A DNA stretch of 64,000 nt from assembly GCF_003148665.1 (NCBI RefSeq), contig NZ_QGGQ01000003.1:310001-374000 (forward strand), given 5' to 3'. Positions within the stretch are counted from its first letter, which is position 1, and every line of letters begins with the position of its first letter. The notes beneath the pieces are model-generated. The model searched no databases, had not been told where the DNA came from, and saw only the letters and a list, made by a program, of their open reading frames with translations. Position numbers and translations under genes: made by a program. Origin of the DNA: Maribacter polysiphoniae (GTDB lineage: Bacteria > Bacteroidota > Bacteroidia > Flavobacteriales > Flavobacteriaceae). This document shows positions 18,489 to 33,748 of this stretch, piece after piece.

Positions 18489-19513
18489 TTGCAAAACAGA
18501 TAAAGGGCAAGGATTTTTATGGACTGTTGGCCTACAACCAACAAAAGGTGGAACTGGGCCAGGCCACTGTGCTGGATGCGAATATAGAATTGGGCAGCCC
18601 GGTCGATATGACCAAGGAGTTCAATTTAATTCGGCAGTTACGCCCGAGACTTGGCAAAGCGGTCTATCATGTGTCCCTGAACCTGCCGCCGGGCGATAAG
18701 ATGCGTGATAGTGAATTCGTTTCGATAGGATTGGATTATCTCAAGGGAATGGGGTTCGATGACAACCAATATATCATGTACCGCCATGACGACCAAAGCC
18801 ATCAACACATCCATATCGTTGCCAATAGGGTAAAACTATCTGGAGCGCTGGTCAGCGATAGTAGGGACTACGAGCGCAGCGAACGCTTGGTACGCAAGCT
18901 GGAAAAGAAATTTGGTCTTTCAGAGCTACCGGACGCAAGCTTGGAAAGAGAGGCGGCACTAACTCAAAAAGAGATAGAAAAATCGCTCCGGACAGGCAAA
19001 GCACCGATTAAAAGCCTGCTTCAACATCATTTGAGGGAAGCGTTAAAACGTTCAGCTACTACAGAGGAATTCCTCTATGAATTGCTGTCAAGAAATATCC
19101 GGCCAAAATTCAATATCAGCAAGACCACGGGAAGGGTTTCCGGTATCTCCTTCAAATATGAAGAAGTGATTTATAAGGGCAGCAGCCTAGGCCGAAAATA
19201 TTCATGGAACAACATCATAAAAAAGATCGATTATGAACAAATCAGAGACCGTGCAGTTATTCTCGAAAATAATCATCCAGAACAAGGAAATAAAGGAGTT
19301 GTTGCTCCGGATACAGGCCAATCAAGTAACACTATCGGAAAGGCAAAAGATGCTGAGGGAGGGACAGTCCAAATTGGTGGAAAACCAAAATACGATTTGG
19401 GAGGCACTCAAAAGGATGGCCTAGATGACGAACCTTTCACTCCGTTCAAAATGGAACTGGAAGATTTCGACCGCAGGAAGCGAAAGAAGAAAAGAAGGAG
19501 AACAGGGAAATAA
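18485..19513 (+). CDS. MOBP-type relaxase (MobA-like mobilization nuclease)
   Basis: 342 residues. The N-terminal relaxase domain begins MIAKQIKGKDFYGLLAYN, and the metal-binding motif III is visible as HDDQSHQHIHIVANRV (H-x-H-x-H type, roughly residues 101-116). It nicks DNA at oriT and is led by the strand into the recipient. After about residue 160 the protein is helical, and the last 25 residues are extremely basic (RKRKKKRRR). It is translationally coupled to mobC. The length is shorter than large MobA-primase fusions, as expected for Bacteroidota mobilizable elements. A second open frame is nested in its 3' part. Confidence 0.88.
   Translation: MIAKQIKGKDFYGLLAYNQQKVELGQATVLDANIELGSPVDMTKEFNLIRQLRPRLGKAVYHVSLNLPPGDKMRDSEFVSIGLDYLKGMGFDDNQYIMYRHDDQSHQHIHIVANRVKLSGALVSDSRDYERSERLVRKLEKKFGLSELPDASLEREAALTQKEIEKSLRTGKAPIKSLLQHHLREALKRSATTEEFLYELLSRNIRPKFNISKTTGRVSGISFKYEEVIYKGSSLGRKYSWNNIIKKIDYEQIRDRAVILENNHPEQGNKGVVAPDTGQSSNTIGKAKDAEGGTVQIGGKPKYDLGGTQKDGLDDEPFTPFKMELEDFDRRKRKKKRRRTGK
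19233..19424 (+). CDS. Possible nested small helical protein inside the relaxase gene
   Basis: 63 codons in the +1 frame relative to the relaxase, ATG to TAG. The translation is unusually protein-like for an overlapping frame: MNKSETVQLFSKIIIQNKEI and then repeated heptad-like Leu/Ile/Gln positions suggesting a continuous amphipathic helix. The relaxase in this stretch is low-complexity and poorly constrained. This may be a genuine overlapping gene or a trace of a former separate gene fused by frameshift. Not recognised. Confidence 0.3.
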   Translation: MNKSETVQLFSKIIIQNKEIKELLLRIQANQVTLSERQKMLREGQSKLVENQNTIWEALKRMA

Positions 19514-19540
19514 AATAGGGTAGGGTATTATTGGAATTTA

Positions 19541-19786
19541 ATGGGCAACCAGGTAAACATACAGCCACTTAATTTGACCGGAAAGGCATTTTGCGAAAAG
19601 CTTGGTGTATCCTATAATGGCCAAATAATGCAAGCTTTACGGGAACTGGGTCTAGTTAGCTTTTTTAAGGTTGGTAAAAAATATCTGTATGCTTATGAGG
19701 ACATTGATTCGGTCAATCAAAAACTTCGCAGAGGGGAGATTTCGATTAAGGTTGACAATGGTTATTATATTACTTTGAACGAATAG
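19541..19786 (+). CDS. Small putative DNA-binding protein downstream of the relaxase
   Basis: 81 residues. The middle section (GKAFCEKLGVSYNGQIMQAL) looks like a helix-turn-helix of the MerR/excisionase kind, followed by a short beta-strand part (YLYAYEDIDSVNQKL) as in excisionases and small regulators. It lies 27 nt after the relaxase on the same strand, and after it begins the repeat-bearing region before tRNA-Leu. An Xis-like or regulatory role is plausible from size and position, but no family was firmly recognised. Confidence 0.5.
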   Translation: MGNQVNIQPLNLTGKAFCEKLGVSYNGQIMQALRELGLVSFFKVGKKYLYAYEDIDSVNQKLRRGEISIKVDNGYYITLNE

Positions 19787-20201
19787 AAGGAAAGGTAGAA
19801 AATGGCTTCACAAGATAACATTTTAAAAAAATTTACCTAGCTAAGATTTTGGGCTATATCTAAAAATGATTCGATAATATAATCAGTCTCTTTACAATAA
19901 GTGGATTTTGTAAAGAGTCAAATTTTTTTAATGTTACTTAATTGACTTTAAGGACAATTCAAGAATCATGATGAAAAGGCTTAATGTAAAGAGTTTGCAA
20001 TCTTATCAATTATTATAGGTCATATTTCCTGCCTTTTATTAGGTATGTAAGTTTGAAAATCTAGATTTACATAGCATTTTTCTTCAATTACAAGTCCCCC
20101 TATTTAAAGTGCATTACTAGATTCTTAAAATTATCACTAACCCTTCAAATTATTCGGATTTTTTTTATCAGTATAATTAATATTGAAGCTTATATGAGCA
20201 G
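19787..20201. other. AT-rich region with short repeats before tRNA-Leu (possible att arm sites)
   Basis: About 415 bases with no gene. A perfect 10-bp inverted repeat, CTCTTTACAA (19888-19897) and TTGTAAAGAG (19908-19917), is followed by another copy of TGTAAAGAG at 19985-19993. Short repeated words next to an integration-prone tRNA resemble arm-type binding sites of tyrosine recombinases or excisionases. Beyond that I see nothing. Confidence 0.4.
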
Positions 20202-20358
20202 ATTAGACTTAGGGGCTAAGCAAGAAAAAGTTCATAAAAATATTAATATGCGGGTGCGGAATTGGTAGACATGGTAGACTTAGGATTTATCCAAATAAAA
20301 GTTCTTAAAATATTGAAAAAGCGGGCGTGGTGGAATTGGTAGACACGCCAGACTTAGG
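20202..20358 (+). repeat. Tandem partial copies of the 5' half of tRNA-Leu
   Basis: The word TAGACTTAGG, the anticodon-arm core of the downstream tRNA, occurs at 20204-20213 and 20275-20284, and as CAGACTTAGG at 20349-20358. The intervals are 71 and 74 bases. The linkers are also related (AAAAGTTC, then T-A-rich bases, then GCGGG). The middle copy (20250-20290) still shows GCGGG, GGAATTGGTAGACA and the anticodon loop but is missing bases and cannot fold. The pattern is expected if recombination at the anticodon region displaced earlier 5' halves. Confidence 0.75.
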
Positions 20359-20402
20359 ATCTAGTGCTTCACGGCGTGGGAGTTCGAGTCTCCCCGCCCG
20401 CA
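20321..20402 (+). tRNA. tRNA-Leu (anticodon UAG)
   Basis: 82 bases. Acceptor arms GCGGGCG (20321-20327) and CGCCCGC (20395-20401) pair fully, with discriminator A at 20402; a D-loop AATTGGTAGA, a long class II variable arm and a T-arm GTTCGAGTC are present. The anticodon TAG is at 20355-20357. The anticodon stem CCAGA/TCTAG has one C-A mismatch (C28 at 20349 against A42 at 20363); the degenerate upstream copies have T at this place, which would restore pairing. CCA is not encoded. A terminator follows directly. Confidence 0.93.
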
Positions 20403-20405
20403 CTT

Positions 20406-20434
20406 AAAGCCGAAGATTTCTCTTCGGCTTTTTT
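20406..20434 (+). terminator. Rho-independent terminator after tRNA-Leu
   Basis: An 11-bp stem (AAAGCCGAAGA and TCTTCGGCTTT) around a TTTC loop, ending in a T-run. Confidence 0.9.
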
Positions 20435-20770
20435 ATTTCAAAAGCTCACAGAAAATAGGCATGGGTATAACATAGGTACAACATTTCTGCATTCCTCATC
20501 TTATAACACGATTTAGTCTTAATTGATTTCAAATGCGAGCATTTTTAAGTTTTACAGCTTTGCTTAAATCTTTTAGCAAATATTTAGAAATAGATAATCC
20601 CAAAATTCATTTGCGTTTTTTGAAAGTGTGAAAATTTGTTAAAATTTTGATTGAAATTTATTACTTTTAAAAAATCAAATTTAAGTTTTCCCCCACTTAT
20701 TTTTTTGATAATCTTAAGTCCACAGTTTTGTGAACCCTATGCCTATGTATAATACAAATGATTTCTATTG
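20435..20770. other. AT-rich intergenic region upstream of the Lamassu operon
   Basis: About 335 bases between the tRNA terminator and the first Lamassu gene. It is very AT-rich with no open frame of note and should contain the operon promoter, but no unambiguous TAnnTTTG element at a sensible distance was identified. No copy of the tRNA 3' end is seen here. Confidence 0.4.
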
Positions 20771-21835
20771 ATGAAAATTAAATTTTTAAAGGCAAGTAAT
20801 GGGGATGCTATCTATATCAATCTTTTAGATAAGAATGACCAACCAAGAAATATTCTTGTAGATGGCGGTCGTGAAGCTACTTACTTTGACAGGGTACGAA
20901 GAAATGGCCCTTTAAAAAGAGTAATAGATGACATTAAGTATAGGAAAGAAAATATTGATTTGCTCATTCTGTCCCATATAGATAACGACCATATTGAAGG
21001 ATTTCTGAAATGGTTTGAGCAGGATAAAAAAGCACCTGATTTTATTAAAGAAGTATGGTTCAATTCTGGTGAAGCAATTGCAAGGTATTTGAAAAAACCA
21101 AAAAACGATGATTTAGATTTATTCCTTGCTGATGGGTCTAATGTCCTTACTGGTGTAGATGAAGGAATAGAATTTCAAAAGTATCTTGAAAAGCATAATC
21201 TTGACCGTGATGGCATCATTAAAGCTGGATTAGAATGGGAAGGTTTCGGTTTAAAAGTCAATATTCTTACACCTACGCATAAACAGTTAGAGAATTTACT
21301 TGAACATTATCAGGAAAAAACAGGTGATATAAAATATACCGCAGCAGGAAATGATTGGCACAAAAATCTAAGTGACATAATTTCTGAAGAAAAAAATCCA
21401 TCTTTCCGATTTAGGCAAGACCGAAGTGAGAAAAACGGCAGTAGTATTACTCTATTAATTTCTTACAGAAATAAGAAGGTTTTACTGCTTGCAGATTCAC
21501 ATCCGAGCGAAGTATGTGCTGCTTTAAAAGATTTTGGCCATTCAAAAGAAAATGCCGTAAAGGTTGAGTTTATGCAAGTATCTCACCACGGCAGTAAAGC
21601 TAACAACAATAAAGAGTTGTTTGAGCTGGTAGATACCCAAAATTACATTATCAGTACTAATAGCTCAGGGCACGGCCACCCACATAAAAGTGTCATCGCA
21701 AGAATTGTATCTAAGAACCCAAAGGCAACCATCTATTCCAATTATGAGACAGTGGCCAATAATCTTCTCACTGAACAGGATAAAGCGGACTTCCCACAAT
21801 TACAAGTCAAACTAATTTCAAAGTTTCAAATTTAA
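20771..21835 (+). CDS. MBL-fold hydrolase, putative LmuA-type effector of a Lamassu/ABC-3C system
   Basis: 354 residues from ATG 20771 (a TTG just before it is not needed). It is a metallo-beta-lactamase fold of the ComEC/competence-like group: LLILSHIDNDHIEG carries the HxDxDH metal motif (H69, D71, D73, H74), ADSHPSE supplies another metal ligand region, and VSHHGSKANN with GHGHPHKSV forms the late histidine motifs. It could hydrolyse a phosphodiester or nucleic acid; the substrate is unknown. It is the first gene of a four-gene operon, 1 nt from the protease gene. In Lamassu systems the effector is released or activated by the SMC-like sensor upon infection. Confidence 0.8.
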   Translation: MKIKFLKASNGDAIYINLLDKNDQPRNILVDGGREATYFDRVRRNGPLKRVIDDIKYRKENIDLLILSHIDNDHIEGFLKWFEQDKKAPDFIKEVWFNSGEAIARYLKKPKNDDLDLFLADGSNVLTGVDEGIEFQKYLEKHNLDRDGIIKAGLEWEGFGLKVNILTPTHKQLENLLEHYQEKTGDIKYTAAGNDWHKNLSDIISEEKNPSFRFRQDRSEKNGSSITLLISYRNKKVLLLADSHPSEVCAALKDFGHSKENAVKVEFMQVSHHGSKANNNKELFELVDTQNYIISTNSSGHGHPHKSVIARIVSKNPKATIYSNYETVANNLLTEQDKADFPQLQVKLISKFQI

Positions 21836-21836
21836 A

Positions 21837-23237
21837 ATGAGCATCAATGATTTAAAAAAACATACTGTAAAGGTAGGTTCTGGAAGTGGGTGCGTGTTTC
21901 AGCCTATGGATGACGAATACACTTATATATTAACCGCAAAGCACCTTTTTCAAAATAAAAACGAAGAGACTGATGAATTAGAATATTTAAGTGATGGTGC
22001 AGAAATACCGTTAACTTTTTTGGATTTTGATGGCAATAAGTGGAATGTTCATTCGGAAACATTCACTATTTGCTTTGAAGAAAATTTCTTTCCTCATCAG
22101 AATTCTGATGCGGCAATTTTGAAAATAACATATCGTGCAGGTTTTGATAATATTCATATCAGAAAAAAGTGCCCACAAAACGAATTCTACCTAAGCGGAT
22201 TTCCAGGAAGACTAAGTCACCAAGATACATTAGGTAATACCGTTGCAACATTTGCAGTTACAAGATTTAAACAATCTGGTGATTTTTTTGATGTTGCTGA
22301 GTTAAGTAACCATAATTTAACAAGAGATGAAATCCAAGGCTGTTCAGGTGGTGGTATTATGGCTGTTGATGGCAAATCAAATGTTTTTATAACAGGAATA
22401 CAAAGTAGGATGGCCACTAATGTTGATTTATCTTTAGGTGAAATCGGATTTGTTCCTATAAGATACTATGAAGATATAGTTGAAATTTATAATGCTGCTG
22501 GAAAACTGGTAGAGTTGCTGCCGGTTTTTCTCAAATCATTTGTTTCACTTATTGGCGACACTTTTCAAATGGGCTCAGCACCAATACACAAGGAAGAAGC
22601 TGCACTTTCAGACCTTCTCACGGCAAAAGCTGAACTAATTCGACAAAGTGATTTAACACCTTTGGGTCTTAAGAGCTTTATGGGTGACGAACGTCTTTTG
22701 GTTAATTGTAAAGACAATGTTGAGCTTCGTCGCAAAAAAGTATGGACTTTTTGGTTAGAGCTGTTGGTGATTTTGAATATCGCTAAAGATAAACTACATA
22801 ATGCCGAAGACTTAGATGCACTTACCCAAAACATCAGGTTTTTTTATTCCAATACCGATAAGGATTTTTTGGATGAGCATTTACAAGACCTATGGAAAGT
22901 TGATTATACTGATTTAGCTGATGGTGGACTTGTGATTTTTGCTTCAAATCAAAAAAGGCAGAGTGCGGTTACCAAGGGTGTACTCGATTTGTGTGATATA
23001 GTGCCAAACATATCATCAGCACGCAGAGAATTTGCGAAAGTACAAAACGAAGCTTTTGCTTCTGACGCTATAAATATTGCTGAAACACTTGATTTTCCAT
23101 TTGACCGTTTTAAATATACCAATATAGCAACATTTAAGGAAGATGCAGCACTGGACCTTGATGAAAAATTTGTTGATATGAAACCAGTAGAGTGTTATCC
23201 TTTATTAAAAGAATTATATGAAAGACTCTTACCGTGA
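21837..23237 (+). CDS. Trypsin-like serine protease effector of the Lamassu/ABC-3C system
   Basis: 466 residues. The N-terminal half is a chymotrypsin-fold protease with an apparent catalytic triad: H36 in YILTAKHLF, D91 in NSDAAIL and S170 in GCSGGGI. There is no signal peptide, so it is cytosolic, as expected for a defence effector rather than a secreted protease. The C-terminal half (about 230-466) is helical with no recognised fold and probably binds the other subunits. It overlaps the next gene by 20 nt. An MBL hydrolase together with a protease matches, from memory, the Hydrolase-Protease subtype of the Lamassu family. Confidence 0.8.
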   Translation: MSINDLKKHTVKVGSGSGCVFQPMDDEYTYILTAKHLFQNKNEETDELEYLSDGAEIPLTFLDFDGNKWNVHSETFTICFEENFFPHQNSDAAILKITYRAGFDNIHIRKKCPQNEFYLSGFPGRLSHQDTLGNTVATFAVTRFKQSGDFFDVAELSNHNLTRDEIQGCSGGGIMAVDGKSNVFITGIQSRMATNVDLSLGEIGFVPIRYYEDIVEIYNAAGKLVELLPVFLKSFVSLIGDTFQMGSAPIHKEEAALSDLLTAKAELIRQSDLTPLGLKSFMGDERLLVNCKDNVELRRKKVWTFWLELLVILNIAKDKLHNAEDLDALTQNIRFFYSNTDKDFLDEHLQDLWKVDYTDLADGGLVIFASNQKRQSAVTKGVLDLCDIVPNISSARREFAKVQNEAFASDAINIAETLDFPFDRFKYTNIATFKEDAALDLDEKFVDMKPVECYPLLKELYERLLP

Positions 23238-23754
23238 TATAAGGGAAATATTCAAAAATGATTTTTCTGAGACCACAGTTGAAGTTACTACTGTGGAATT
23301 AGAGAAGGGTATAACCCATTGTATTTTTCTTAAAATACCCGATGAAAAATTCTTGTTAGAAAACTGGAAAGCTATAACAAATAATATAGCATTGAATTAT
23401 CAAAATCATCTTGAAACAAGTTTTGAAAAATGGAATATCTATCTGTTCTTTTTAACGTCGCAAGCTATTGAAGATATTGATTTAAAATATACCATAGAGA
23501 ACAACACCTTTTCCAGCCGAAAAATTGTTGAAGATGCCTCTCTGTCACAAGAAGCTCTAATTAAGAAACACGTCAACAATGAGCTGACCTTAGAAGCTGA
23601 TGTAATTAGAAGTGAGTCCGTTGATTTCTTATACGACCCCATAATTTACGATGTCTTGAAAGATAAAAGAATTAAGAAAAAGAACATTTTGCCAGAACAA
23701 TTAAATCTTGCGTATGATGAGTTAATCACTAAATTTAGAGAGGAAGAAGAATGA
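23218..23754 (+). CDS. Small middle component (LmuC-like) of the Lamassu/ABC-3C system
   Basis: 178 residues with no enzymatic motif. It lies between the effectors and the ATPase with overlaps on both sides (20 nt and ATGA), exactly where ABC three-component systems carry their middle component. The sequence alternates strand-like and helical parts (GITHCIFLKIP, WNIYLFFLTSQAIEDI) and ends in a charged helix. It probably bridges the effector and the SMC-like ATPase. Function is inferred from operon architecture. Confidence 0.7.
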   Translation: MKDSYRDIREIFKNDFSETTVEVTTVELEKGITHCIFLKIPDEKFLLENWKAITNNIALNYQNHLETSFEKWNIYLFFLTSQAIEDIDLKYTIENNTFSSRKIVEDASLSQEALIKKHVNNELTLEADVIRSESVDFLYDPIIYDVLKDKRIKKKNILPEQLNLAYDELITKFREEEE

Positions 23755-26700
23755 AATTCAATTCAGTAGAAATATCAGGTTTTAGGATTTATGACCGTCC
23801 AGAAGATGCCAACTTTAATTTTGTGACCGAAGATGGTGAAACTGCGGATTTTGTTTCGCTTTTTGCACCCAATGGTTTTGGCAAAACATCGTTTTATGAT
23901 GCCGTTGAGTGGGCTGTGACAGATTATGTGGGGCGATTCTGGGTCACAAAAAATACCGAGAAATCGCTTAGGACAATGCGACGTCTTACGTCTGGGCAAA
24001 TATCACTTTTTAAAAACCGGAATTCCACGAATGAGACTTGGGTAAAAATCCTTGACTCAGAGAATAATGTTTACAAAGAAAACCGCCTTAAAGTCGCTAA
24101 ACAACGTGCAAACGATGCCAGCTCTAATAGTAAGGATGATAAGAATTTTGCAAGAGTAATTCTTTCGCAAGAATGGATTGCAAGATTTTTAAAAGAGGCT
24201 GACGGACAGATTCGCTATAAAAAATTTATGGAAAGTAATCCAGGCCTCAGCGAGGTCGATTTGTACTACCAAAATGTCATTGCACTTTCGGGTGCTAATA
24301 ATAAAAAGATTGATGTTCTTGAAAAAGACATAAAAGAATTTAAGGGCAGGATTACGGAAACCTCTGATAAAGACTTGTTGGCTACCGTTAATAACCAAAT
24401 AGCTGTTATCAACAATTTTGAGTTCAATGAAAGACTTGATGTAATTGAGATTACGACTACCAAAAAGCAAGTAACAGATTTTCGGGATGCTCTAACGGAT
24501 AGAATTACAGACGATACCGAGTTTAAAAAATTAAAAAAATTACTGTCGCACATTCGATTGGCACAGAATGGCGATACCGATTTCCTTTCTCGTAAGCAGT
24601 ACTTTGAAGCTATAGAGAACTTGGCAAATACGGTTAAGCAACAAATTGTAATAAATGAAAATCTGCTGGATTTCAAAAAACTCGAAGCTACCGCTAATGA
24701 AATAAAGCAAAAGGAAAAATCAAAGGCTGAAATTTTGACACGGTTAAAAGCACTTGAAGTTATCCAGAATTTGATTCCCGCTTATAACGATACACTTTCA
24801 AAAATCACGTCGAAAAATGAGGTCAAAAACCAACATCAGGAAAAATTAAAGAAACTTCAAACCTATATTGAAGAGAGCAATAGGAAGGTCATAGAGGCTG
24901 AAAGTGCCAACAAGAGGTTTGAAAGGCAGCGTTTGAAAATCAATGAGCAATTAGCCAAAATCCCTGAACTTAAAAACAACCTTGAGTCGCTTGTAACTTC
25001 AATTAAGTCTTTAAAAGAAAAAATTGAGCCTCAGCACAAAAAAGTTTCTAAATCGCAAACTGCATATTCTAAGCTTGAGGAAGAGATTGATGAACTTGAA
25101 AAGGTTATCCAAGAATTTGATTTGGGTCAATATTCGGAAACAAGCCTTGGTAAGAATCAAGAACAGATAAAGAACCTGAAACAGCTTGAAACTTTGGAAG
25201 CACTAAGGTTGGGGTTTAAGAAAGAGTTAGAGTCAATACAAGAGAACATCGATTCGCAAGAATCACTCAATAAATCCCTTAATGAGTTTATTGCTTCTGG
25301 TCTTGCCATTGTGAACCAGCAGGAAACCGACACTTGCCCGCTCTGCGAACAAACCTATGATAATTATCAAGCTCTGGCAGATAGAATATTAAACAACAAT
25401 GCGCTTTCTACCTCTATAAAAACCTTACTGGATGAGCGCTCAAAAAAACAATCGGAAATAAATGAAAATGTAGGTACAGCAGATAAGCTATACGAAAACA
25501 TCAAGCAGTTTTACGTAAATAAGTTGGCCGATTTACAAAATCGACTAAAACGTGCTGAAGAAACAAAGGAAAGTGAAGAACGTGTTCTCGATGAGCTAAC
25601 AAAGCATCTAAATGCAGAAAATGAGAGGCTTCTCGACTTAAAATCAAATTTTCAAGATGAATCCATAGATGCCTACCAGAAAAAGCTTAAAGCAGAAATA
25701 GAGGTTGTACAGACTTCCAAAGCATCTGGTGAAGAACAAATCAAAAAAACCAAAGAAGCACATCAAAAATTAGAATCTGAGAAGATTGAACTTTCAGAGA
25801 AGATAGAACTATTGAATTCCGAAATCAATGATTTAGCAAATGATAAAGATTATAATGAAGTTGCCCAGTGGTTGGATATCAACGACCAGGGTGAAGAACA
25901 AATAATTGATTTTGTTAGTGCCAAGATCCAAAAAACCAAGGATGAATCCAAAGAGTTAGATGAAGCTCTTTCAACTCTAAAAAAAGAGATAAAAACGCTC
26001 GATGAAAAACTCAAAAAACTTAACGAAGAACAACTCAAGGAAAATTTAAATGAAGTAGAGAAAAAACTTCAGGATTTGGAATCCCGTGTTGGGGCTTATC
26101 AAAACCATCTTGAAGATAATCTTCTAATAAAAACAAGTAGCCTAACGAATGAAACGCTCAATAGTTCCCTAAAAACCCAGGAAACTGAAACAAAAGAAAA
26201 GATAAGCCAGCACGAGCAATACGTAATCGAGGTAAATAAACTTAAAGGCTACTCTGAAAACATTCTGCCATATTTACAATCCGAGCAGGCAAAATTAGAT
26301 TTGGCCAATACACAAAAGGAACTGAAATTTTTGCACGATAATGTGCGCAAATCTCTAAATGCTGAAATTGAGAAAACCAAAAATCATTTGGACCAAAGAA
26401 TTAAGGACTTCTTTTACGAAGATTTAATCAATGAAATTTACGGGAAGATTGACCCTCACCCAACGTTCAAAAATGTTAAGTTTATCGCAACTTTTAGTGG
26501 TGATAGCCCAAGTCTCGATGTTTACGTGAAAGGTGGGACAGAAGAGAATGATGAAAATAGTCTTATCCCGAATTTATATTTCAGTTCAGCCCAGATAAAT
26601 ATTTTGAGTCTTAGCATCTTTCTGGCTTCTGCACTTAATTCAAAAACTTATGACTGTATATTTATCGATGACCCAATTCAATCTATGGATAGCATAAATG

Positions 26701-26906
26701 TACTTTCTACCATAGACTTATTGAGAAGTATTGTTGTAAATAATAAAAAGCAAATCATTCTCTCTACACACGATGAGAATTTTCACAATCTTTTAAAAAT
26801 GAAAATTCCTTCTAAACTTTTTAAGTCAAAGTTTTTGGAACTCGAAAGTTTTGGAAAGTTAAAATCAACCCAATTGGGTAATGAACCTCTATACTCAAAG
26901 GCCTGA
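23751..26906 (+). CDS. SMC/Rad50-like ABC ATPase (LmuB-like sensor) of the Lamassu/ABC-3C system
   Basis: 1051 residues. The N-terminal ATPase half has Walker A APNGFGKTSF (P40 to F48). Long coiled coils (about 170-500 and 560-850) flank a zinc hook with CPLC (C529 and C532). The C-terminal half has a degenerate signature (FSSAQINILSLS) and Walker B CIFIDDPIQSMD (about 968-979), then the H-loop STHDENF. This is the Rad50-type layout used in Lamassu to sense foreign DNA ends or replication intermediates and then switch on the effectors. It is the last gene of the operon; its start overlaps the middle component by ATGA. Confidence 0.88.
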   Translation: MKFNSVEISGFRIYDRPEDANFNFVTEDGETADFVSLFAPNGFGKTSFYDAVEWAVTDYVGRFWVTKNTEKSLRTMRRLTSGQISLFKNRNSTNETWVKILDSENNVYKENRLKVAKQRANDASSNSKDDKNFARVILSQEWIARFLKEADGQIRYKKFMESNPGLSEVDLYYQNVIALSGANNKKIDVLEKDIKEFKGRITETSDKDLLATVNNQIAVINNFEFNERLDVIEITTTKKQVTDFRDALTDRITDDTEFKKLKKLLSHIRLAQNGDTDFLSRKQYFEAIENLANTVKQQIVINENLLDFKKLEATANEIKQKEKSKAEILTRLKALEVIQNLIPAYNDTLSKITSKNEVKNQHQEKLKKLQTYIEESNRKVIEAESANKRFERQRLKINEQLAKIPELKNNLESLVTSIKSLKEKIEPQHKKVSKSQTAYSKLEEEIDELEKVIQEFDLGQYSETSLGKNQEQIKNLKQLETLEALRLGFKKELESIQENIDSQESLNKSLNEFIASGLAIVNQQETDTCPLCEQTYDNYQALADRILNNNALSTSIKTLLDERSKKQSEINENVGTADKLYENIKQFYVNKLADLQNRLKRAEETKESEERVLDELTKHLNAENERLLDLKSNFQDESIDAYQKKLKAEIEVVQTSKASGEEQIKKTKEAHQKLESEKIELSEKIELLNSEINDLANDKDYNEVAQWLDINDQGEEQIIDFVSAKIQKTKDESKELDEALSTLKKEIKTLDEKLKKLNEEQLKENLNEVEKKLQDLESRVGAYQNHLEDNLLIKTSSLTNETLNSSLKTQETETKEKISQHEQYVIEVNKLKGYSENILPYLQSEQAKLDLANTQKELKFLHDNVRKSLNAEIEKTKNHLDQRIKDFFYEDLINEIYGKIDPHPTFKNVKFIATFSGDSPSLDVYVKGGTEENDENSLIPNLYFSSAQINILSLSIFLASALNSKTYDCIFIDDPIQSMDSINVLSTIDLLRSIVVNNKKQIILSTHDENFHNLLKMKIPSKLFKSKFLELESFGKLKSTQLGNEPLYSKA

Positions 26907-27040
26907 AGCATTGTCGTGATTATAAGTTCACTTGGGAATGACTATAAATGTACTTGTACCTGTTTTTTGTATTTTAAGAGCAGTCTTGTAAAATTAGAGC
27001 TCTTTCTTATACTTTTATCCAAAGCGTATATTAATAAAAT

Positions 27041-30000
27041 ATGGGAGCTACTTCGGCATTAAAAGGATACAGGACACAATTTCTATACTCACTATACAGA
27101 ATACTTGTCGACTATGATAAGGGCTACGTTTTTCGAATCGAAGGGGGGTATGAAGATATTGACATACTAGACAACCAAAGAGAATATGTGGAGTCTGTCC
27201 AAATAAAAAATAAAAGCGGAAACTTAAGTTTTTCTGATTTGTTTACAGCGAGTGATTCGTTTTTCAAACGAGCATCTAAGTTATCGGCTAAGAGTAATGG
27301 CGTAAAAATTAAGATTGTCTCCTTCGGAAGCGTAAGTGAAGAATTGAAGAATGATAAAATTCTTGCAAAAAAATTAAAGAAGAAGAGATTTAAGGATGAA
27401 ACTATCAAGAGAATACTTGATACCTATCAACTACCAGAATTAGTAAATGAAGAGCATTTAACCTCTCAGGTTTTACAACGTTTAAAAGAGTTCAATGTTT
27501 TTACCGACCCTAGTATTGCTTTAGAACTTTTATTATTTTGGATTTACCGTTCTGGCGAAAATCAAAGGGATATCCTGGGTAAGGATTTTGTAAGTAATCT
27601 AAATAGAATTGGCCAATTTATAAGTGAACAAAAATCTTTTCAAAATCAATTTGGTAAATCCATACATCCAATTACCCTAAAAAATCTTTTAGATGAAGAT
27701 GTCCAAACTCTGAAGAAGACATTTTACTATGGGATTTCTGCTAAATATGAGCATATTCTTGCTGATTTGGATGTAGTTCGGGAAGAACAATTGGACTTGA
27801 TAAAAATTGCATTTCATAGGAGTAATATTGTTTTTATACACGGAGCTTCAGGTCAAGGAAAAAGTACATTAGCCTATAGATACATACATGATTATTTAGA
27901 ATCAAATGCTGTATACGAGCTTAGACTTTCCAAGAACGAAAACGAGGTTTATCAGACTTTGAATACTCTTGAGGCAATGAGTAAAGGGTTAAACTTCCCC
28001 ATTACTGTCTATATTGATGTAGAACCTCAAAACAACAATTGGAACAGCATTTTAAGAGAGCTTTCAAATAAAGAAAACGTCAACTTTTTAATCACAATCC
28101 GCCAAGAAGATTGGAATAGGGTGGTCTTAGGCGAGGACTATGAATTCCAGGACATTGAACTGGTTTTTAACAGAAACGAAGCCAAGGTGATATATGATTC
28201 TCTTTCCTCGTATCGGACTGATTTGAAGTTTACCGATTTTGAAGACTCCTGGCTAGAATTTGGGATGGGCGAAATGTTGTTGGAATACGTTTATCTAATT
28301 AATGAAGGAGATACACTAAGAATTAGGTTAGACAATCAAGTACGTCGGCTGGAGAAAGAGAAAAAGGTTGATGAACTAAAGATTTTAAAATATGTGTGCA
28401 TTGCTGATACGTATGGCGCTAAACTTGACTATCTAGAGCTTCTGAAATTTCTAAAAATAGATAGAACCCTTTCCAATTCATACGTGCAATTGTTGGAAAA
28501 GGAATATCTATTAAAATACTCAAGAAACAAGAAATTTCTAACCGGTCTGCACCCAATCCGATCTAAGCTTTTGTACGATATTTTAATTGAAAATAATGAT
28601 TTCGATGATAAAAACCAGTATATCAGTAATTTATTGAATATAATTGACGAAGATGATTTGCATAAGTTCTTATTGAATAGTTACATGAATGGCTATGCGG
28701 TTGAAGATTCCATACAATGGCTAAGTATAATTGATTTCAAATCCTGGGCGGGATTCCTTAATTCTTTTAACTCTTTATTATGGAAAGGAGCTCATGATTA
28801 TACTTTGATTACAAACCAAGAGGTATTCGAAGATGCATATACACTTTTGAAAGGTGCTTGGTGGATATTTGTTTTTGTGGATTTCACTGAGATGCTGACA
28901 TCAAAATCCCAACTTGATTTGCTTGATATTCTCCACAAGAATCATGAAGGCCCTAATAAAAGGAAGGCACAAATAGAGAGGTTAACCGCGCGACTAACAC
29001 CAAAAGATGAGGTTTTTAAGTATTGTAACTCTTGGCTGCAAAATTACAGTCAAATTGACATAACGCCGACGGAAGTGGATGATTATAAAAATCTCGGTGA
29101 GTTATTGTTTTGGCTCGGGCATCTAAAACTACAAACTACCATACCACTTAAGGAAAATGACTTACTAGAATTTTTTGAACGTGGGACAGTAGATATAGAG
29201 ATTAAATCTTTATTCCTTTTAGGTTTAAAATCATATAACTATTTCATTGATAAAGTGGAATTAAAGATTAAAATAGAGGAAATCTTCATAGCCAATTTCC
29301 GAAAACTCTTTAACATTCCATTTTTTACTGATAATGGGAAAGAAATATCGTCTAAATTCTTTTTTGACTTAACAACAGCTTATCATGATAATAAGCTGGA
29401 AAACAAACAATTTTCAGACGGCGGGATAATTGATGTTGATTTTGAAAACCTAATTGATTCTTCAAACATATTTCATGAAAGTACAACTAGGATATTAAAT
29501 ATGTTGAGACAAGCTTTTCCAGATAGAAATAAGTTTCAAATTAATGGAATTGGTTACAACCCTACGGGTATGGTTTCAGACCATGATCCTACCTCAAAAA
29601 ACATTTCCATCGAAAATTTACCCCTTCATTTTCTTACCGGGTTAAATCGTTTGATTATCAATTTTGTTGATTATCAATACAGAACGGAGAATTGGGAAGA
29701 ATACATAGAGAAAATACTTGATGACAGAAGAATACATTACAATGCTTTATTAGAGTTCAGAAAGGGCATTGTTATGTACTTTAAAAACGAAAATAATGGT
29801 CTTAAGTTCTTAATAGAAAATGAATCTTTAATAAAGCAGCCATTATCAGAAGTGGAAAATCAAAAACTGCCAAAAAGTGTTGCGGATAAGTGGTGTTATT
29901 TAGGTGACGACATAAAAAAGAAAGAAGACTACAAAAACGTCAAGGTTGCGTACAGTGCTTTTAAATATAGAAATTTCACCTCAATAAAAAGGGACTTTTT

Positions 30001-31183
30001 TACTAGTATAAGCAACTATATTAATCGTTCTTATGAGGAAATTTCAAATTCGTTAAAAAGACTTAATGGCAAAGGTGCAGAAATAGAAAACGAAAACCTG
30101 CGAAACTTAACCGAAGTTATTTTGAGTGATTCTTTCAAAAACCAAGTAGCTTTTCAAGAAGAACTTGCCGACAAGTTTGAAAAGTACTATGACTCAAAAG
30201 AATTGCTAACTCTTGCAGAAAAGGAGAAGAATTTGTTATTAACTCATATAACCATTTGGAAAGCATTTCTTTATTCTCCCCATAGATACCAACCAAGTAT
30301 TTTGAAATCAGCTCGATTGAGATTTGAAAAAACTATTTTGGATTTAAGAAAACGAATATTGAAAGAGACTAGGAATCACTTTTCAGGTTCGAATCTTTAC
30401 GGCGAACTGATTACAGACACTGATAACAAAAATTTAATCTTTTTGTTGAACGTAACTATTGAAAATTCAATGGATGCGGTTTGGTCCTTCGTCGATTTGA
30501 TTTTAACAATCTTCGGTTCAACCCATCATTCATCTTTGAAAAACCTAATTTTATCCCTGAAATTTGAGACTGTAACTCTTGTTCAGCTAGTCGACGGTAA
30601 ACCGATCCATGACAAGTTTTTTGAAGTTTCTACTTCAAAACTAAGTTATATTCAAACCAAAGTTAATGAGGGCTATGAGTTTACAAGCTTATTTGAAATA
30701 TTTAATATCCCAAAGGACACAAACAAAGAATTTCTAAGAGAAAAGGATATTTTCTTTTGGAACGATATAATACCGGAAATCAAACTATATGAGGAATGTT
30801 ATCAAACGATAGCTACTCTGCAATATTTAGATACACACCTAGAACAGATTAAATTAAGTTTTGAGAATGTTGATGAAATTGGTAACGGCATAGTTCAAAA
30901 TTATTTTAGCAACATTCAAAAGGGAGTCTTAACCGATGTTGGGCGTGAAATAGAGCTAAGGATTGATAAATTGAGCGATCATTTAATTAACAACGCCGAT
31001 AACGAATCCAAATTTGATTTTGAAGAATTAAAGTCAATTTGTAAAGACATAAATAAATTAACCAATGTAGATATGGCTCAATTTAGCCTATCAGACGTGC
31101 TTTCCAAGGTTCCAGAAATAGAAAAATTATATATGATTTTTGTTCAGGATAAAATTGACGAATTTAAAGATTTGTTGCCTTAG
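27041..31183 (+). CDS. Cap4-like (DUF4297) nuclease fused to a STAND-like P-loop ATPase with a large C-terminal sensor region
   Basis: 1380 residues. Residues 1 to about 110 resemble the Cap4/DUF4297 dsDNA endonuclease, a PD-(D/E)xK fold: GYRTQFLYSLYRIL with Q13, then E34 and ED39-I-D41, and VQIKNK with Q54 and K56. A P-loop ATPase follows: Walker A GASGQGKST (268-276), a Walker B-like strand ITVYIDVE (321-328) and an arginine in LITIRQEDW (R354). The last 900 residues are helical, without clear repeats, and probably detect a trigger. This layout recalls Avs/STAND defence proteins, in which target recognition drives oligomerisation and nuclease activation, but I cannot place it in a named subtype. 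It stands alone 134 nt after the Lamassu operon. Confidence 0.75.
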   Translation: MGATSALKGYRTQFLYSLYRILVDYDKGYVFRIEGGYEDIDILDNQREYVESVQIKNKSGNLSFSDLFTASDSFFKRASKLSAKSNGVKIKIVSFGSVSEELKNDKILAKKLKKKRFKDETIKRILDTYQLPELVNEEHLTSQVLQRLKEFNVFTDPSIALELLLFWIYRSGENQRDILGKDFVSNLNRIGQFISEQKSFQNQFGKSIHPITLKNLLDEDVQTLKKTFYYGISAKYEHILADLDVVREEQLDLIKIAFHRSNIVFIHGASGQGKSTLAYRYIHDYLESNAVYELRLSKNENEVYQTLNTLEAMSKGLNFPITVYIDVEPQNNNWNSILRELSNKENVNFLITIRQEDWNRVVLGEDYEFQDIELVFNRNEAKVIYDSLSSYRTDLKFTDFEDSWLEFGMGEMLLEYVYLINEGDTLRIRLDNQVRRLEKEKKVDELKILKYVCIADTYGAKLDYLELLKFLKIDRTLSNSYVQLLEKEYLLKYSRNKKFLTGLHPIRSKLLYDILIENNDFDDKNQYISNLLNIIDEDDLHKFLLNSYMNGYAVEDSIQWLSIIDFKSWAGFLNSFNSLLWKGAHDYTLITNQEVFEDAYTLLKGAWWIFVFVDFTEMLTSKSQLDLLDILHKNHEGPNKRKAQIERLTARLTPKDEVFKYCNSWLQNYSQIDITPTEVDDYKNLGELLFWLGHLKLQTTIPLKENDLLEFFERGTVDIEIKSLFLLGLKSYNYFIDKVELKIKIEEIFIANFRKLFNIPFFTDNGKEISSKFFFDLTTAYHDNKLENKQFSDGGIIDVDFENLIDSSNIFHESTTRILNMLRQAFPDRNKFQINGIGYNPTGMVSDHDPTSKNISIENLPLHFLTGLNRLIINFVDYQYRTENWEEYIEKILDDRRIHYNALLEFRKGIVMYFKNENNGLKFLIENESLIKQPLSEVENQKLPKSVADKWCYLGDDIKKKEDYKNVKVAYSAFKYRNFTSIKRDFFTSISNYINRSYEEISNSLKRLNGKGAEIENENLRNLTEVILSDSFKNQVAFQEELADKFEKYYDSKELLTLAEKEKNLLLTHITIWKAFLYSPHRYQPSILKSARLRFEKTILDLRKRILKETRNHFSGSNLYGELITDTDNKNLIFLLNVTIENSMDAVWSFVDLILTIFGSTHHSSLKNLILSLKFETVTLVQLVDGKPIHDKFFEVSTSKLSYIQTKVNEGYEFTSLFEIFNIPKDTNKEFLREKDIFFWNDIIPEIKLYEECYQTIATLQYLDTHLEQIKLSFENVDEIGNGIVQNYFSNIQKGVLTDVGREIELRIDKLSDHLINNADNESKFDFEELKSICKDINKLTNVDMAQFSLSDVLSKVPEIEKLYMIFVQDKIDEFKDLLP

Positions 31184-31302
31184 CACATTTAATATTTGGG
31201 AACTGGTGGTTATTTCGGAGTAATGGTGCCACCCATTTCGGTCAAATGGACTTATAATATCTACGCGACTTAGCACAATTATGGCACACGTTAGAGCATT
31301 AA

Positions 31303-31509
31303 CTAGGGTACAATTCTTTCATCGGTTATCAGCCTGCTTGAATAAATATTAAATTCTTTATAGAGTGCACCTTTTGGAAAAGTGTTTTGAATATAAATGT
31401 CCTTAAAGGTTTTCAAAGAGGTAGAAGCTTCTAATTTTAGAATAAATGGTTGTGTTAATTGATGATTTTTATGAATGAGCAGCGTAAATTGACTACGATG
31501 AATCGCCGG
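31303..31509 (-). pseudogene. Protein-like open frame continuing past the recombinase stop codon
   Basis: After the TAG that ends the tyrosine recombinase (31510-31512) the same frame stays open for 68 codons to a second TAG at 31303-31305. The translation is protein-like (for example FTLLIHKNHQLTQPFILK and GALYKEFNIYSSRL) but has no Met, so it is not an independent gene. It is either an extension removed by a premature stop in the recombinase or the tail of another gene truncated by insertion. The remaining 120 bases to the end of the ATPase gene hold nothing recognisable. Confidence 0.45.
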
Positions 31510-32700
31510 CTAACCAAACAATCGATTCATTTCTTCCGCTTCCTCTTTGTGATAGAAATCTTTTAAATAATGCTGGGTTGTTGATAATTTGGTATGACCC
31601 AATAGTTTAGAAATCATCAATATTCCAGTATTGGATTTTACCGCGAAATCTGCAAAAGAATGTTTGGCCATATGCATACTCACCCCTTTTTTAATGCCTG
31701 CTTTTTTACACGCAATTCTCAATGATCGGTTGGCAGCGTTGTTTGAAATATATAGTCGATGTTCAATTTCTTCGGCCGATTTGTCTTCCATACCATAGAG
31801 TGGAGGGAAGACGAACGTTTCATCCTTACCTTTGTATTTCTCTATTATATCGATTGCCTTAGGGGTAACTGGCAAAGTTCTTTTCGCACCGGCACGAGTT
31901 TTAGATTTTCCCATGGTGTAGACAATCTCATTCCCGATGATATTTTCCCATTTGAGTCGGCATACGTCGGAGAAGCGCATGCCGGCGGTAAAAAAAGAAA
32001 ATAAAAACATATCCCTAGCCTTAGACATCCCTTTGTGATGCGCTGGAATTTCTAAATCTGAAAGCTTTTTGATTTCATCGAATGTAAGGGATTCTTTCTC
32101 CGTATTCTCGGTAACAATTTGATAACCTTTTATTGGGTTTATTTTGATGATGCCAATGGCAACTGCCTTATTCAGAACCGCATATAGCGATTTAAAGTTG
32201 GAGGCAACTGTATTTACTTTGTTTCCTTTCTCAAGCATCCATTGTTCATAATCTTTAGCAAACTGAACTGATAAATCTGAAAATGAAACGTGATTTGCAA
32301 ACTCCTTCAACTTTTTTATATACTTCTGCTGGGTATTGGCCGTACGTATTTTTCCTTTTAGTCTGGCCTCATCCACTATCTGTTGATAGAAATCCAAGAA
32401 GGAACTGGAGTCGTACTTTTGGGCATTTTTGTAAAGGAAAAGAAGTCTTTTCGCTGAAATGCCCTCATTTTCATAATACAGTTTCTGAAGTGAAAGTAAA
32501 AGGGTGTTTAAACTGGTGTTTAATTTTTCCTCTATAGGATGACGCTTGATTTTTTTTCTTTTATCGTCCCATTGAGTTCTTCTAACGGAGATTCCTGAAT
32601 CTAAATATTGTACATCCCTATTAGAGGTCTCCATCTTGAGCCTTATCAATTGCGTGCCATTTTTCTTGACGTAAGAAGAAAGATAGAAATTAAGGTTCAT
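31510..32700 (-). CDS. Tyrosine recombinase / integrase with an altered HxxR box
   Basis: 396 residues from ATG 32700 (MNLNFYL); a TTG further upstream (32736) is unlikely. An arm/core-binding region (about 1-200) precedes the catalytic domain. Catalytic residues are Arg I in AGMRFSD, the His-x-x-Arg box read as HMAKHSFA (Lys in place of the usual Arg), LLGH, and the nucleophile in TTQHYLKD. The Lys is encoded AAA, one base from an Arg codon (AGA). This may impair or alter strand exchange. The gene lies at the boundary between the second defence block and the core gene yebC, so it probably brought that block in. Bacteroidota integrases of this kind often use tRNA or gene 3' ends. Confidence 0.88.
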   Translation of the reverse strand: MNLNFYLSSYVKKNGTQLIRLKMETSNRDVQYLDSGISVRRTQWDDKRKKIKRHPIEEKLNTSLNTLLLSLQKLYYENEGISAKRLLFLYKNAQKYDSSSFLDFYQQIVDEARLKGKIRTANTQQKYIKKLKEFANHVSFSDLSVQFAKDYEQWMLEKGNKVNTVASNFKSLYAVLNKAVAIGIIKINPIKGYQIVTENTEKESLTFDEIKKLSDLEIPAHHKGMSKARDMFLFSFFTAGMRFSDVCRLKWENIIGNEIVYTMGKSKTRAGAKRTLPVTPKAIDIIEKYKGKDETFVFPPLYGMEDKSAEEIEHRLYISNNAANRSLRIACKKAGIKKGVSMHMAKHSFADFAVKSNTGILMISKLLGHTKLSTTQHYLKDFYHKEEAEEMNRLFG

Positions 32701-32821
32701 TTTAATTAGTTCGATATTAGTTCGAAAACCAATCAAATATAAACAAAAATAAAGGAATATAAACTTTTTATGAGTTGTTGAAAAACAGTGTTATAGTAGT
32801 AGGTGTAAGGTTTAATGCTAC

Positions 32822-33532
32822 TTATTCCTGCATGGTATGATATACGTTTTGTACATCATCGTCCTCTTCAATTTTTTCCAGTAATTTTTCAACGTCGGCG
32901 ACTTCCTCTTCACTAAGTTTTTTAGTCACTTGAGGAATACGCTCAAATCCTGAGGATAAAATCTCTATTTCTTTGTGTTCCAGTTCTTTTTGAATGGCCC
33001 CGAAACTTTCAAAAGGCGCGTAGATCAAAATACCATCATCGTCGACGAAAACCTCTTCCGCACCAAAATCGATCATTTCAAGTTCAAGTTCCTCAGGGTC
33101 GATTCCTTCAGCATCTATTCTAAAATTGCAGGTATGGTCGAACATGAATTCAACAGAACCCGATGTACCTAGACTACCGTTGCATTTATTGAAATAACTA
33201 CGGATGTTAGCAACGGTCCTTGTATTGTTGTCCGTTGCCGTTTCAATCAATATGGCGATACCATGGGGGGCATACCCCTCGAAAAGTACCTCTTTATAAT
33301 CACCTAGACTTTTATCGGTGGCCCTTTTGATGGCCCTCTCGATATTGTCCTTGGGCATATTCACGGATTTGGCATTCTGTATAACCGCTCTAAGCCTTGA
33401 ATTGGAGTCAGGATCAGGGCCGCCTTCCTTTACGGCCATTACAATGTCTTTCCCGATACGTGTAAACGCCTTGGACATCGCGGACCATCTTTTCATTTTA
33501 CGTGCCTTCCTGAATTCAAAAGCTCTTCCCAT
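32822..33532 (-). CDS. yebC: YebC/PmpR-family translation or transcription regulator
   Basis: 236 residues, the usual length. It begins MGRAFEFRKARKMKRWSAMS and contains the family blocks GGPDPDSNSRLR, NMPKDNIERAIKRA and EGYAPHGIAILIE. YebC proteins are conserved, cytosolic; some bind promoters, and related proteins assist ribosomes at proline stretches. The acidic C-terminal segment ends in the family-typical DDVQNVYHTM. It is the first core gene after the accessory region, with its 3' end about 120 bp from the recombinase promoter region. Single-gene transcription is likely. Confidence 0.95.
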   Translation of the reverse strand: MGRAFEFRKARKMKRWSAMSKAFTRIGKDIVMAVKEGGPDPDSNSRLRAVIQNAKSVNMPKDNIERAIKRATDKSLGDYKEVLFEGYAPHGIAILIETATDNNTRTVANIRSYFNKCNGSLGTSGSVEFMFDHTCNFRIDAEGIDPEELELEMIDFGAEEVFVDDDGILIYAPFESFGAIQKELEHKEIEILSSGFERIPQVTKKLSEEEVADVEKLLEKIEEDDDVQNVYHTMQE

Positions 33533-33748
33533 AATTTGTGATGTATATTGTTAAACGGCTGTAAATTTAAGAAAATTTACAAAGTAATGGCCCATAATGC
33601 ATTCCAAGAATGACGGGAAGTACATGTTCTTTTCCATATTTTTAAAGGAGTCTTCTGAATTATGGTTTCAGTGATTTCAACGAGAGGTGAAAGTCCTTGT
33701 GCATCAGCCTGTTTCGTACAGGAGGAATCCCTTATTGCCCAACTGGCG

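What the first reader, a model, noticed from the sequence alone, without database searches (positions are those of the whole stretch)
27041..31183. 1380-residue Cap4-like nuclease fused to a STAND-like ATPase, unplaced subtype
The N-terminal nuclease signature (E34, ED39-I-D41, Q54-I-K56) and a P-loop with Walker B and a sensor Arg are visible, followed by about 900 residues with no recognisable repeat. Avs-type proteins have similar order but usually a larger TPR sensor. The gene stands alone after a Lamassu operon and before an integrase, typical of cargo. This is the best candidate for an undescribed defence system in the window.
Basis: partly seen in the sequence, partly recalled or inferred. 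Interest (0 to 1): 0.8.

Follow-up and report, generated by a model that had tools for sequence, protein, structure and literature searches.

The report
Unnamed nuclease-STAND defence-type protein family
A marine bacterium carries, on a mobile island, a large single protein that joins a DNA-cutting domain to an immune-receptor-type switch; it belongs to an unnamed family scattered over several bacterial phyla that probably senses phage infection and destroys DNA.

Summary
The ORF at 27041-31183 is real: 1380 residues, intact. Residues 1-225 match the Cap4 dsDNA-nuclease family above its cut-off, and the PD-(D/E)xK residues E34, D39, Q54, K56 are invariant in 12 of 12 homologues. Residues 227-360 are a STAND NTPase (nSTAND_NTPase5, exactly at cut-off). 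The last ~860 residues have no known domain or detectable repeat and diverge fastest, as a sensor would. No PADLOC or NCBIfam Avs model matches; comparison with an actual Avs2 and Avs5 gives only the P-loop. Of five other proteins compared, the nearest NTPase is fused to SIR2, suggesting effector swapping. Relatives of similar length occur in Bacteroidota, Cyanobacteriota and Deinococcota, often beside different defence systems (Hachiman, Avs2, Shedu, Ptu-like, restriction). Here the gene sits with a complete Lamassu operon in an 11.7-kb segment missing from a sister genome. Most likely it works like Avs3: the sensor binds a phage cue, the ATPase oligomerises, nuclease domains pair and cut DNA. 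Defence activity and trigger are untested; structure models were poor. I call it a new variant of a known kind (effector-STAND immune receptors).

The parts
27041..31183 (+). complete gene of the 1380-residue Cap4-nSTAND protein
   Evidence: relatives
27041..27424 (+). residues 1-128: Cap4-type PD-(D/E)xK nuclease domain (E34, E38-D39, Q54-x-K56)
   Evidence: PF14130 30.1 bits over cut-off 26.2, match 6-128; invariant residues
27719..28120 (+). residues 227-360: STAND NTPase, nSTAND_NTPase5 by Pfam
   Evidence: PF25199 34.0 bits, cut-off 34
27842..27868 (+). Walker A GASGQGKST, residues 268-276
   Evidence: invariant S270 G271 G273 K274
28004..28021 (+). Walker B TVYIDV, residues 322-327
28094..28111 (+). 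sensor motif T352-x-R354-x-x-D357
   Evidence: 12 of 12 identical
28166..28600 (+). residues 376-520: conserved part taken as the helical/winged-helix end of the STAND module (extent inferred), with H504 and R507 invariant
   Evidence: conservation by region; low model confidence there
28601..31180 (+). residues 521-1380: C-terminal region, proposed sensor (inferred)
   Evidence: no family match of note, no repeat, fastest diverging
20768..26906 (+). neighbouring Lamassu operon: MBL nuclease (20768-21835), trypsin-CTD4 protease (21837-23237), LmuC (23218-23754), LmuB (23751-26906); separate system
   Evidence: PADLOC LmuA 3.2e-108, LmuA 6e-92, LmuC 5.7e-32, LmuB 5.8e-234; Pfam
31510..32736 (-). 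tyrosine integrase next to the cargo
   Evidence: Phage_integrase 4.4e-21, Phage_int_SAM_5 2.7e-20
19774..31513 (.). 11.7-kb segment with tRNA-Leu, Lamassu and this gene, absent from the same place in sister genome G831
   Evidence: blastn of window against L039; low GC
20321..20403 (+). tRNA-Leu (tag) inside the segment
   Evidence: ARAGORN

Best explanation
It is a single-gene anti-phage immune receptor of the effector-STAND kind: an N-terminal Cap4 dsDNA nuclease, a central STAND ATPase switch and a ~860-residue C-terminal sensor. Proposed steps: (1) the C-terminal region binds an infection cue, probably a conserved phage protein (inferred, by analogy with Avs3 and Avs4); (2) binding releases the STAND module, which binds ATP and oligomerises (inferred from its intact Walker A, Walker B and sensor Arg and from the STAND family); (3) nuclease domains pair and become active (inferred: the related DUF4297 nuclease needs dimerisation); (4) they cut double-stranded DNA, phage and host, stopping the infection at the cost of the cell (inferred). 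Shown here: the domain make-up, invariant catalytic residues, a family spread over several phyla, presence/absence between sister genomes, and repeated neighbourhood with different defence systems.
For: Nuclease: PF14130 over cut-off, 9 of 11 N-termini match at E up to 0.1; the A7 profile finds two PDB sequences at E up to 1, LmuA 9ux7 (4.5e-7) and DUF4297 8ziq (0.0015); catalytic residues 12 of 12. The DUF4297 relative is a dsDNA nuclease activated by dimerisation, its nearest folds are the Avs3 and Cap4 nucleases, and cells with it lose their DNA on infection (PMC11291478; sections 11 and 12 and passages read). Switch: PF25199 at cut-off; Foldseek of the N-terminal model to Avs3 6.1e-6, Avs5 1.1e-5, Avs4 1.5e-5, human apoptosome 8.1e-6, CED-4 1.7e-4. 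Sensor-like divergence: clade A mean identity 33-37% in nuclease, NTPase and 376-520, 17-22% beyond 520. Defence context: of 11 distinct homologue loci (10 with neighbours scanned), 6 have a neighbour with a PADLOC match at E under 1e-20 (L006, L008, L013, L018, L029, L031) and 2 more at 1e-9 to 1e-10 (L004, L007); partners differ, so the gene probably acts alone. Mobility: found in 1 of 12 genus genomes, 1 of 9 among the complete ones; segment absent from G831; GC 31-36% against mostly 39-48% outside. Tree: the window protein groups with cyanobacterial and Deinococcus plasmid copies and one same-class genome, apart from a second clade of Bacteroidota members.
Against: No experiment. The nuclease was not reported by the full-length Pfam scan nor in G000 by the PF14130 genome search; only the isolated N-terminus passes. 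Full length, 2 of 7 members match it. PF25199 at its cut-off is not specific: one of the 7 genomes over it (L045, 34.9 bits) looks by eye like a PilB/GspE-type ATPase, and L041, also over it, shares only the P-loop with this family. Both structure models are poor (mean pLDDT 49 and 36, alignments of 3 sequences), TM-scores are 0.20-0.27, and ordinary AAA proteins follow from about 1e-4. 3 of 11 loci (L005, L030, L032) show no convincing PADLOC neighbour, of which L030 was not scanned. Neighbour proteins were picked by eye, which favours hits, and there was no random-locus control.
Confidence: 0.67

Rival explanations
1. A nucleic-acid-sensing restriction machine: the C-terminal region recognises foreign, modified or damaged DNA directly and the ATPase gates the nuclease, with no phage protein as trigger.
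For: The only solved nuclease relatives found by sequence belong to Lamassu and DUF4297-HerA, not to protein-sensing Avs. The sensor has no TPR-type repeat signature.
Against: The ATPase is of the STAND type, whose solved members Avs3 and Avs4 bind phage terminase and portal (entry titles; Avs3 also in PMC11291478). No known DNA-binding domain was found in Pfam.
Confidence: 0.17
2. A highly diverged member of Avs3 (Cap4-STAND-TPR) rather than a separate family.
For: Same domain order with the same effector class; Foldseek hit to Avs3 8dgc at 6.1e-6.
Against: No PADLOC or NCBIfam Avs match at E up to 1 for the window protein or 0.1 for 7 members, while PADLOC Avs2 models find the Avs2 near the Caulobacter homologue at 4.4e-271. 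PDB sequence searches return no Avs3 at E up to 1. The Avs3 chain is longer (2028 residues in 8dgc_A). Not compared directly with an Avs3 sequence or alignment.
Confidence: 0.08
3. A cargo gene with another role (anti-plasmid, competition between mobile elements) that uses the same nuclease switch.
For: Copies on plasmids and on contigs with recombinase, relaxase-like or conjugation-type genes by eye.
Against: The neighbours are mostly known or candidate anti-phage systems; but anti-phage and anti-plasmid roles are not exclusive.
Confidence: 0.08

Closest known systems
Avs3 (AVAST type 3; PDB 8DGC)
   Same: Cap4-type nuclease (PMC11291478), central STAND ATPase, long C-terminal part; the poor N-terminal model matches it in Foldseek.
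   Different: No sequence-profile match; 1380 against 2028 residues; no TPR signature found. Not compared with an Avs3 alignment.
Avs2 (L070, Caulobacter plasmid; its locus copy L008 matches PADLOC Avs2 at 4.4e-271)
   Same: Nuclease-STAND-sensor plan (nuclease by eye); the two lie about 3 kb apart on one plasmid.
   Different: Profile comparison finds only the P-loop (E 0.049, probability 1.1%).
Avs5 (SIR2-STAND; PDB 9JAP)
   Same: Foldseek 1.1e-5.
   Different: SIR2 effector; profile comparison with L041 (a 9JAP relative at 5.5e-52) gives only the P-loop region (E 0.16).
SIR2-nSTAND_NTPase5 protein of Bacteroidota (L040, G328)
   Same: Nearest NTPase of the five proteins compared: 198 columns, E 4.5e-6, probability 86.6%; PF25199 69.9 bits.
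   Different: N-terminus is SIR2 (ThsA 4.8e-10) instead of Cap4; the alignment stops after the NTPase.
Lamassu LmuA (PDB 9UX7) and DUF4297-HerA nuclease (PDB 8ZIQ)
   Same: Same nuclease family by profile.
   Different: Separate effector subunits working with an SMC-like (recalled) or HerA ATPase, not fused to STAND.

Membership tests
Cap4 / DUF4297 nuclease (PF14130) | profile match over curated cut-off | tested here: met
   residues 1-225: 30.1 bits, cut-off 26.2, E 6.8e-7; 9 of 11 members match at E up to 0.1. Not listed for the full-length protein nor in G000
Cap4 / DUF4297 nuclease (PF14130) | PD-(D/E)xK catalytic residues | tested here: met
   E34, D39, Q54, K56 identical in 12 of 12
Cap4 / DUF4297 nuclease (PF14130) | PD-(D/E)xK fold | tested here: inconclusive
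   model gives helix-strand-strand-helix-strand in a fitting order (H4-24, E38-44, E50-57, H74-84, E89-94) but pLDDT is mostly under 55 there
STAND NTPase, nSTAND_NTPase5 (PF25199) | profile match over curated cut-off | tested here: met
   34.0 bits, cut-off 34 (marginal); 39.2 bits in the genome search; 6 of 7 members match at E up to 0.1; the cut-off is not fully specific (L045)
STAND NTPase, nSTAND_NTPase5 (PF25199) | Walker A, Walker B, sensor Arg | tested here: met
STAND NTPase, nSTAND_NTPase5 (PF25199) | ATP-driven oligomerisation | not testable with these tools
   needs biochemistry
Avs1-Avs5 | match to a named Avs profile | tested here: not met
   none at E up to 1 in PADLOC or NCBIfam for this protein (HMMER's filters drop most above about 0.1); none at 0.1 for 7 members
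Avs1-Avs5 | effector, STAND, long C-terminal part in this order | tested here: met
Avs1-Avs5 | TPR or similar helical repeats in the sensor | tested here: inconclusive
   no repeat in Pfam or profile self-alignment; C-terminal model unusable, pLDDT 36
Avs1-Avs5 | recognition of a phage protein | not testable with these tools
   needs phage and co-expression assays
Lamassu | belongs to the operon (LmuA, LmuB, LmuC) | tested here: not met
   the operon is complete without it; 134-nt gap; tblastn of the window's four Lamassu proteins against the loci then held gave no hit at 1e-5; one distant LmuB near L018

The most novel reading that the evidence does not exclude
A new AVAST-type receptor family with two deep clades and an outlying member, over four bacterial phyla, whose STAND switch exchanges effectors (Cap4 nuclease here, SIR2 in L040) over an unknown, non-TPR sensor fold of about 860 residues that recognises a phage feature not targeted by Avs1-Avs5.
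Probability: 0.37. Interest if true: 0.65.

Novelty: new variant of a known kind. Interest (0 to 1): 0.47.

Why it matters
It adds an unnamed, apparently single-gene family to the bacterial relatives of NLR immune receptors. It is not named by the defence-gene libraries searched here, is scattered across phyla, and carries a sensor region with no known fold. If the switch really takes different effectors (Cap4 or SIR2), it is a case of modular effector exchange, and finding its trigger would show what else in phages such receptors can recognise.

Tried and rejected
Named-family matches: PADLOC, Pfam, NCBIfam, PHROGs and PDB sequence searches of the window protein gave no Avs or other named full-length match. 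The UvrA hits in NCBIfam and PDB cover only the P-loop region and were rejected. Membership of Lamassu rejected. Att repeats: no exact direct repeat of 12 or more bases between 20300-20600 and 31150-33600, so the insertion ends are known only from the G831 comparison. An internal repeat in the C-terminus was sought and not found. The C-terminal structure model was discarded. Sigma-70-type promoter and terminator scans found no more than shuffles (18 against a mean of 19.0; 0 terminators against 2.2). Six viral-contig scans gave two distinct contigs in all. Marginal genome hits G502 and G304 were dropped as partial (122 and 63 residues). An hhalign of the N-terminus meant for three PF14130 proteins used two, since L067 gave no ORF in my filter (probability 69%, E 4.3e-5). 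A PADLOC control of 10 other window proteins gave hits in 2, which lie in another defence cluster (Argonaute, DUF262-like), and none in the other 8; it is not a random-genome control.
Full report
What is there. The window (G000 contig C3, 310001-374000) lies in a genome that shares this gene at 100% with the MAG Muricauda sp. TMED12 (L003). The ORF 27041-31183 encodes 1380 residues without a stop.

Nuclease. The full-length protein did not list PF14130, the genome search with PF14130 found nothing in G000 (5 of 99 genomes matched), and 2 of 7 full-length members match it. But residues 1-225 alone match Cap4_nuclease with 30.1 bits against a cut-off of 26.2 (E 6.8e-7), and 9 of 11 homologous N-termini match at E up to 0.1. 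A profile of those 11 N-termini finds two PDB sequences at E up to 1: Lamassu LmuA (9ux7, 4.5e-7) and the phage-defence DUF4297 protein (8ziq, 0.0015); the Avs3 and Cap4 entries are not among them. PADLOC's LmuA model PDLC03848 matches 3 of 7 full-length members, best 1e-10. G9, E34, G36, D39, Q54 and K56 are identical in 12 of 12 members. The DUF4297 protein of DUF4297-HerA is a dsDNA nuclease whose activity depends on its PD-(D/E)xK residues and on dimerisation, its nearest folds are the Avs3 and Cap4 nucleases, and infected cells that carry the system lose their DNA (PMC11291478; sections 11 and 12 and find-passages read).

Switch. PF25199 nSTAND_NTPase5 matches 227-360 at 34.0 bits, exactly its cut-off; 6 of 7 members match at E up to 0.1. 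A model of 1-650 is poor overall (mean pLDDT 49.2) but better at 241-370 (blocks of 63-87); Foldseek puts SAMD9, Avs3, the human apoptosome, Avs5 and Avs4 in the first seven rows (2.5e-6 to 1.5e-5), with low TM-scores, and ordinary AAA proteins follow from about 1e-4. PF25199 at E up to 0.001 rings in 140 of 148 genomes and 14 of 14 controls; 7 of 148 genomes have a match over the cut-off. Even those are mixed: L045 looks by eye like a PilB/GspE-type ATPase. L040 is a SIR2 protein (ThsA 4.8e-10) whose NTPase aligns with our family over 198 columns (E 4.5e-6, probability 86.6%). In contrast, L041, which also passes PF25199 and is an Avs5 relative (9jap 5.5e-52), and an Avs2 (L070, the protein that matches PADLOC Avs2 at 4.4e-271 in its L008 copy) match only around the P-loop (E 0.16 and 0.049), as do, without significance, the NTPase neighbours in L018 and L032 (E 0.27 and 0.009, the latter at the N-terminus).

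Sensor. Residues 521-1380 have no family match of note and no internal repeat by profile self-alignment. Mean identity within clade A is 32.8% (1-110), 24.0% (111-225), 36.9% (226-375), 34.3% (376-520), 20.4% (521-760), 22.2% (761-1100) and 17.0% (1101-1380); clade B falls from 50-56% in nuclease and switch to 28-38% beyond 520. A few C-terminal residues are still fixed (P827, P944 and Q1039 in 12 of 12), so it is one homologous region. The C-terminal model is unusable (pLDDT 36.0).

Family and spread. Relatives: plasmids, 11 of 72,556 records, one covering at least 80% of the query (Pseudanabaena, 28%, 3e-129); phages, 1 of 50,697, an unannotated gut clone; viral contigs, 2 distinct; 2 of 199 genomes of the family, 5 of 395 of the phylum of which 2 are partial, 3 of 295 of the class with the profile, 1 of 12 of the genus, the window's own genome counted each time. 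In a tree of 12 members the window protein is in clade A with Pseudanabaena, Deinococcus, L006, L013 and the same-class genome L030 (96/99; 100/100 when the Caulobacter row is not counted); clade B holds Hymenobacter, three genomes of the window's family and one viral contig; Caulobacter is a long branch of unsure place; the forks inside clade A are mostly open.

Neighbourhoods. Apart from the window's Lamassu, I looked at 11 distinct loci and scanned 29 neighbour proteins, chosen by eye, from 10 of them with PADLOC. Strong (under 1e-20): L031 HamA 1.2e-107 and HamB 3.5e-301 directly upstream; L018 SduA 3.7e-145 and an LmuB 2.6e-109; L008 Avs2 4.4e-271; L013 Orf5 5.1e-57 and MTase 5.6e-35; L006 PDC-M62A 1e-36 and M62B 1.7e-29; L029 E1-E2 2.3e-27 and JAB 3.1e-27. 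Moderate: L004 helicase 2.6e-10, L007 type IIG 1.1e-9. None convincing: L005 (best of 5 proteins 2.7e-6), L032 (0 for the 3 neighbours scanned, the third), L030 (not scanned; flanks look like housekeeping genes). Of 10 other window proteins scanned, 2 hit (both in a second defence cluster) and 8 did not.

Mobility. In sister genome G831 the integrase-yebC block (window 31514-33532) is followed after 24 bases by the sequence of window 19559-19773, so 19774-31513 is absent there. In the stretches fetched from G830, G833 and G834 the yebC gene is conserved but its other neighbours differ, and tblastn with the window's integrase found none. The 1-kb blocks from 20001 to 33000 have 31-36% GC, against 39-48% in the other blocks of 15001-38000 except 19001-20000 (37%); the low GC includes the integrase, which G831 shares. 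No att repeat was found. Loss in G831 rather than gain here is not excluded.

Mechanism. I read it as an Avs3-like abortive receptor acting alone: sensing by 521-1380, ATP-driven assembly, nuclease pairing, dsDNA cleavage. Domain make-up, conservation, presence/absence and defence context are shown; sensing, assembly, cutting and protection are inferred. What I say of Avs3 and Avs4 rests on entry titles, PMC11291478 and recall; of Avs5 on passages of PMC12931631.

Literature. Searches for STAND with Cap4, nSTAND, Avs6/AVAST, Avs2-4, LmuA with Cap4, DUF4297 with STAND, and 'Cap4-STAND' type names listed no paper that I could recognise as being on this family in the open-licence library; only listings were seen except the passages and sections cited. 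The key AVAST paper (10.1126/science.abm4096) is not held, so prior mention there cannot be ruled out.

Noticed in passing
window 4888-6411 and 6408-7766 (-): The 507-aa protein is a prokaryotic Argonaute (PADLOC pAgo_I 4.8e-197); the overlapping 452-aa ORF upstream may be its partner (not examined).
   Followed up: no
window 8490-10616 (-): 708-aa DUF262/GmrSD-like protein (PADLOC HEC-06 1.1e-44, Orf5), part of a second defence cluster left of the island.
   Followed up: no
window 20768-23237: The Lamassu operon carries an MBL-fold nuclease and a trypsin-CTD4 protease, the kind of nuclease-protease pair described in PMC12799240 (passages seen).
   Followed up: partly
window 20258-20289: A 32-base stretch 88% identical to part of the adjacent tRNA-Leu (20332-20363) lies just upstream, perhaps a decayed tRNA copy.
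   Followed up: no
L032 3800-9118: 1772-aa ORF directly upstream of the homologue in G061, no PADLOC match at 0.001 or PDB match at 0.1; its N-terminus aligns weakly with the family's nuclease part (E 0.009, probability 4.5%). Possible second nuclease-NTPase defence protein.
   Followed up: partly
L040 517-3429: SIR2 domain fused to an nSTAND_NTPase5 module, a possible effector-swapped relative of the window protein.
   Followed up: partly
L006 (MT836892.1): Record labelled Bacteriophage sp. holds a Ptu-like pair (PDC-M62A/B) and a family member; it looks like a piece of a bacterial defence island.
   Followed up: no
L045 (G283): A protein over the PF25199 cut-off (34.9 bits) that looks by eye like a PilB/GspE-type ATPase: the model's cut-off is loose.
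   Followed up: no
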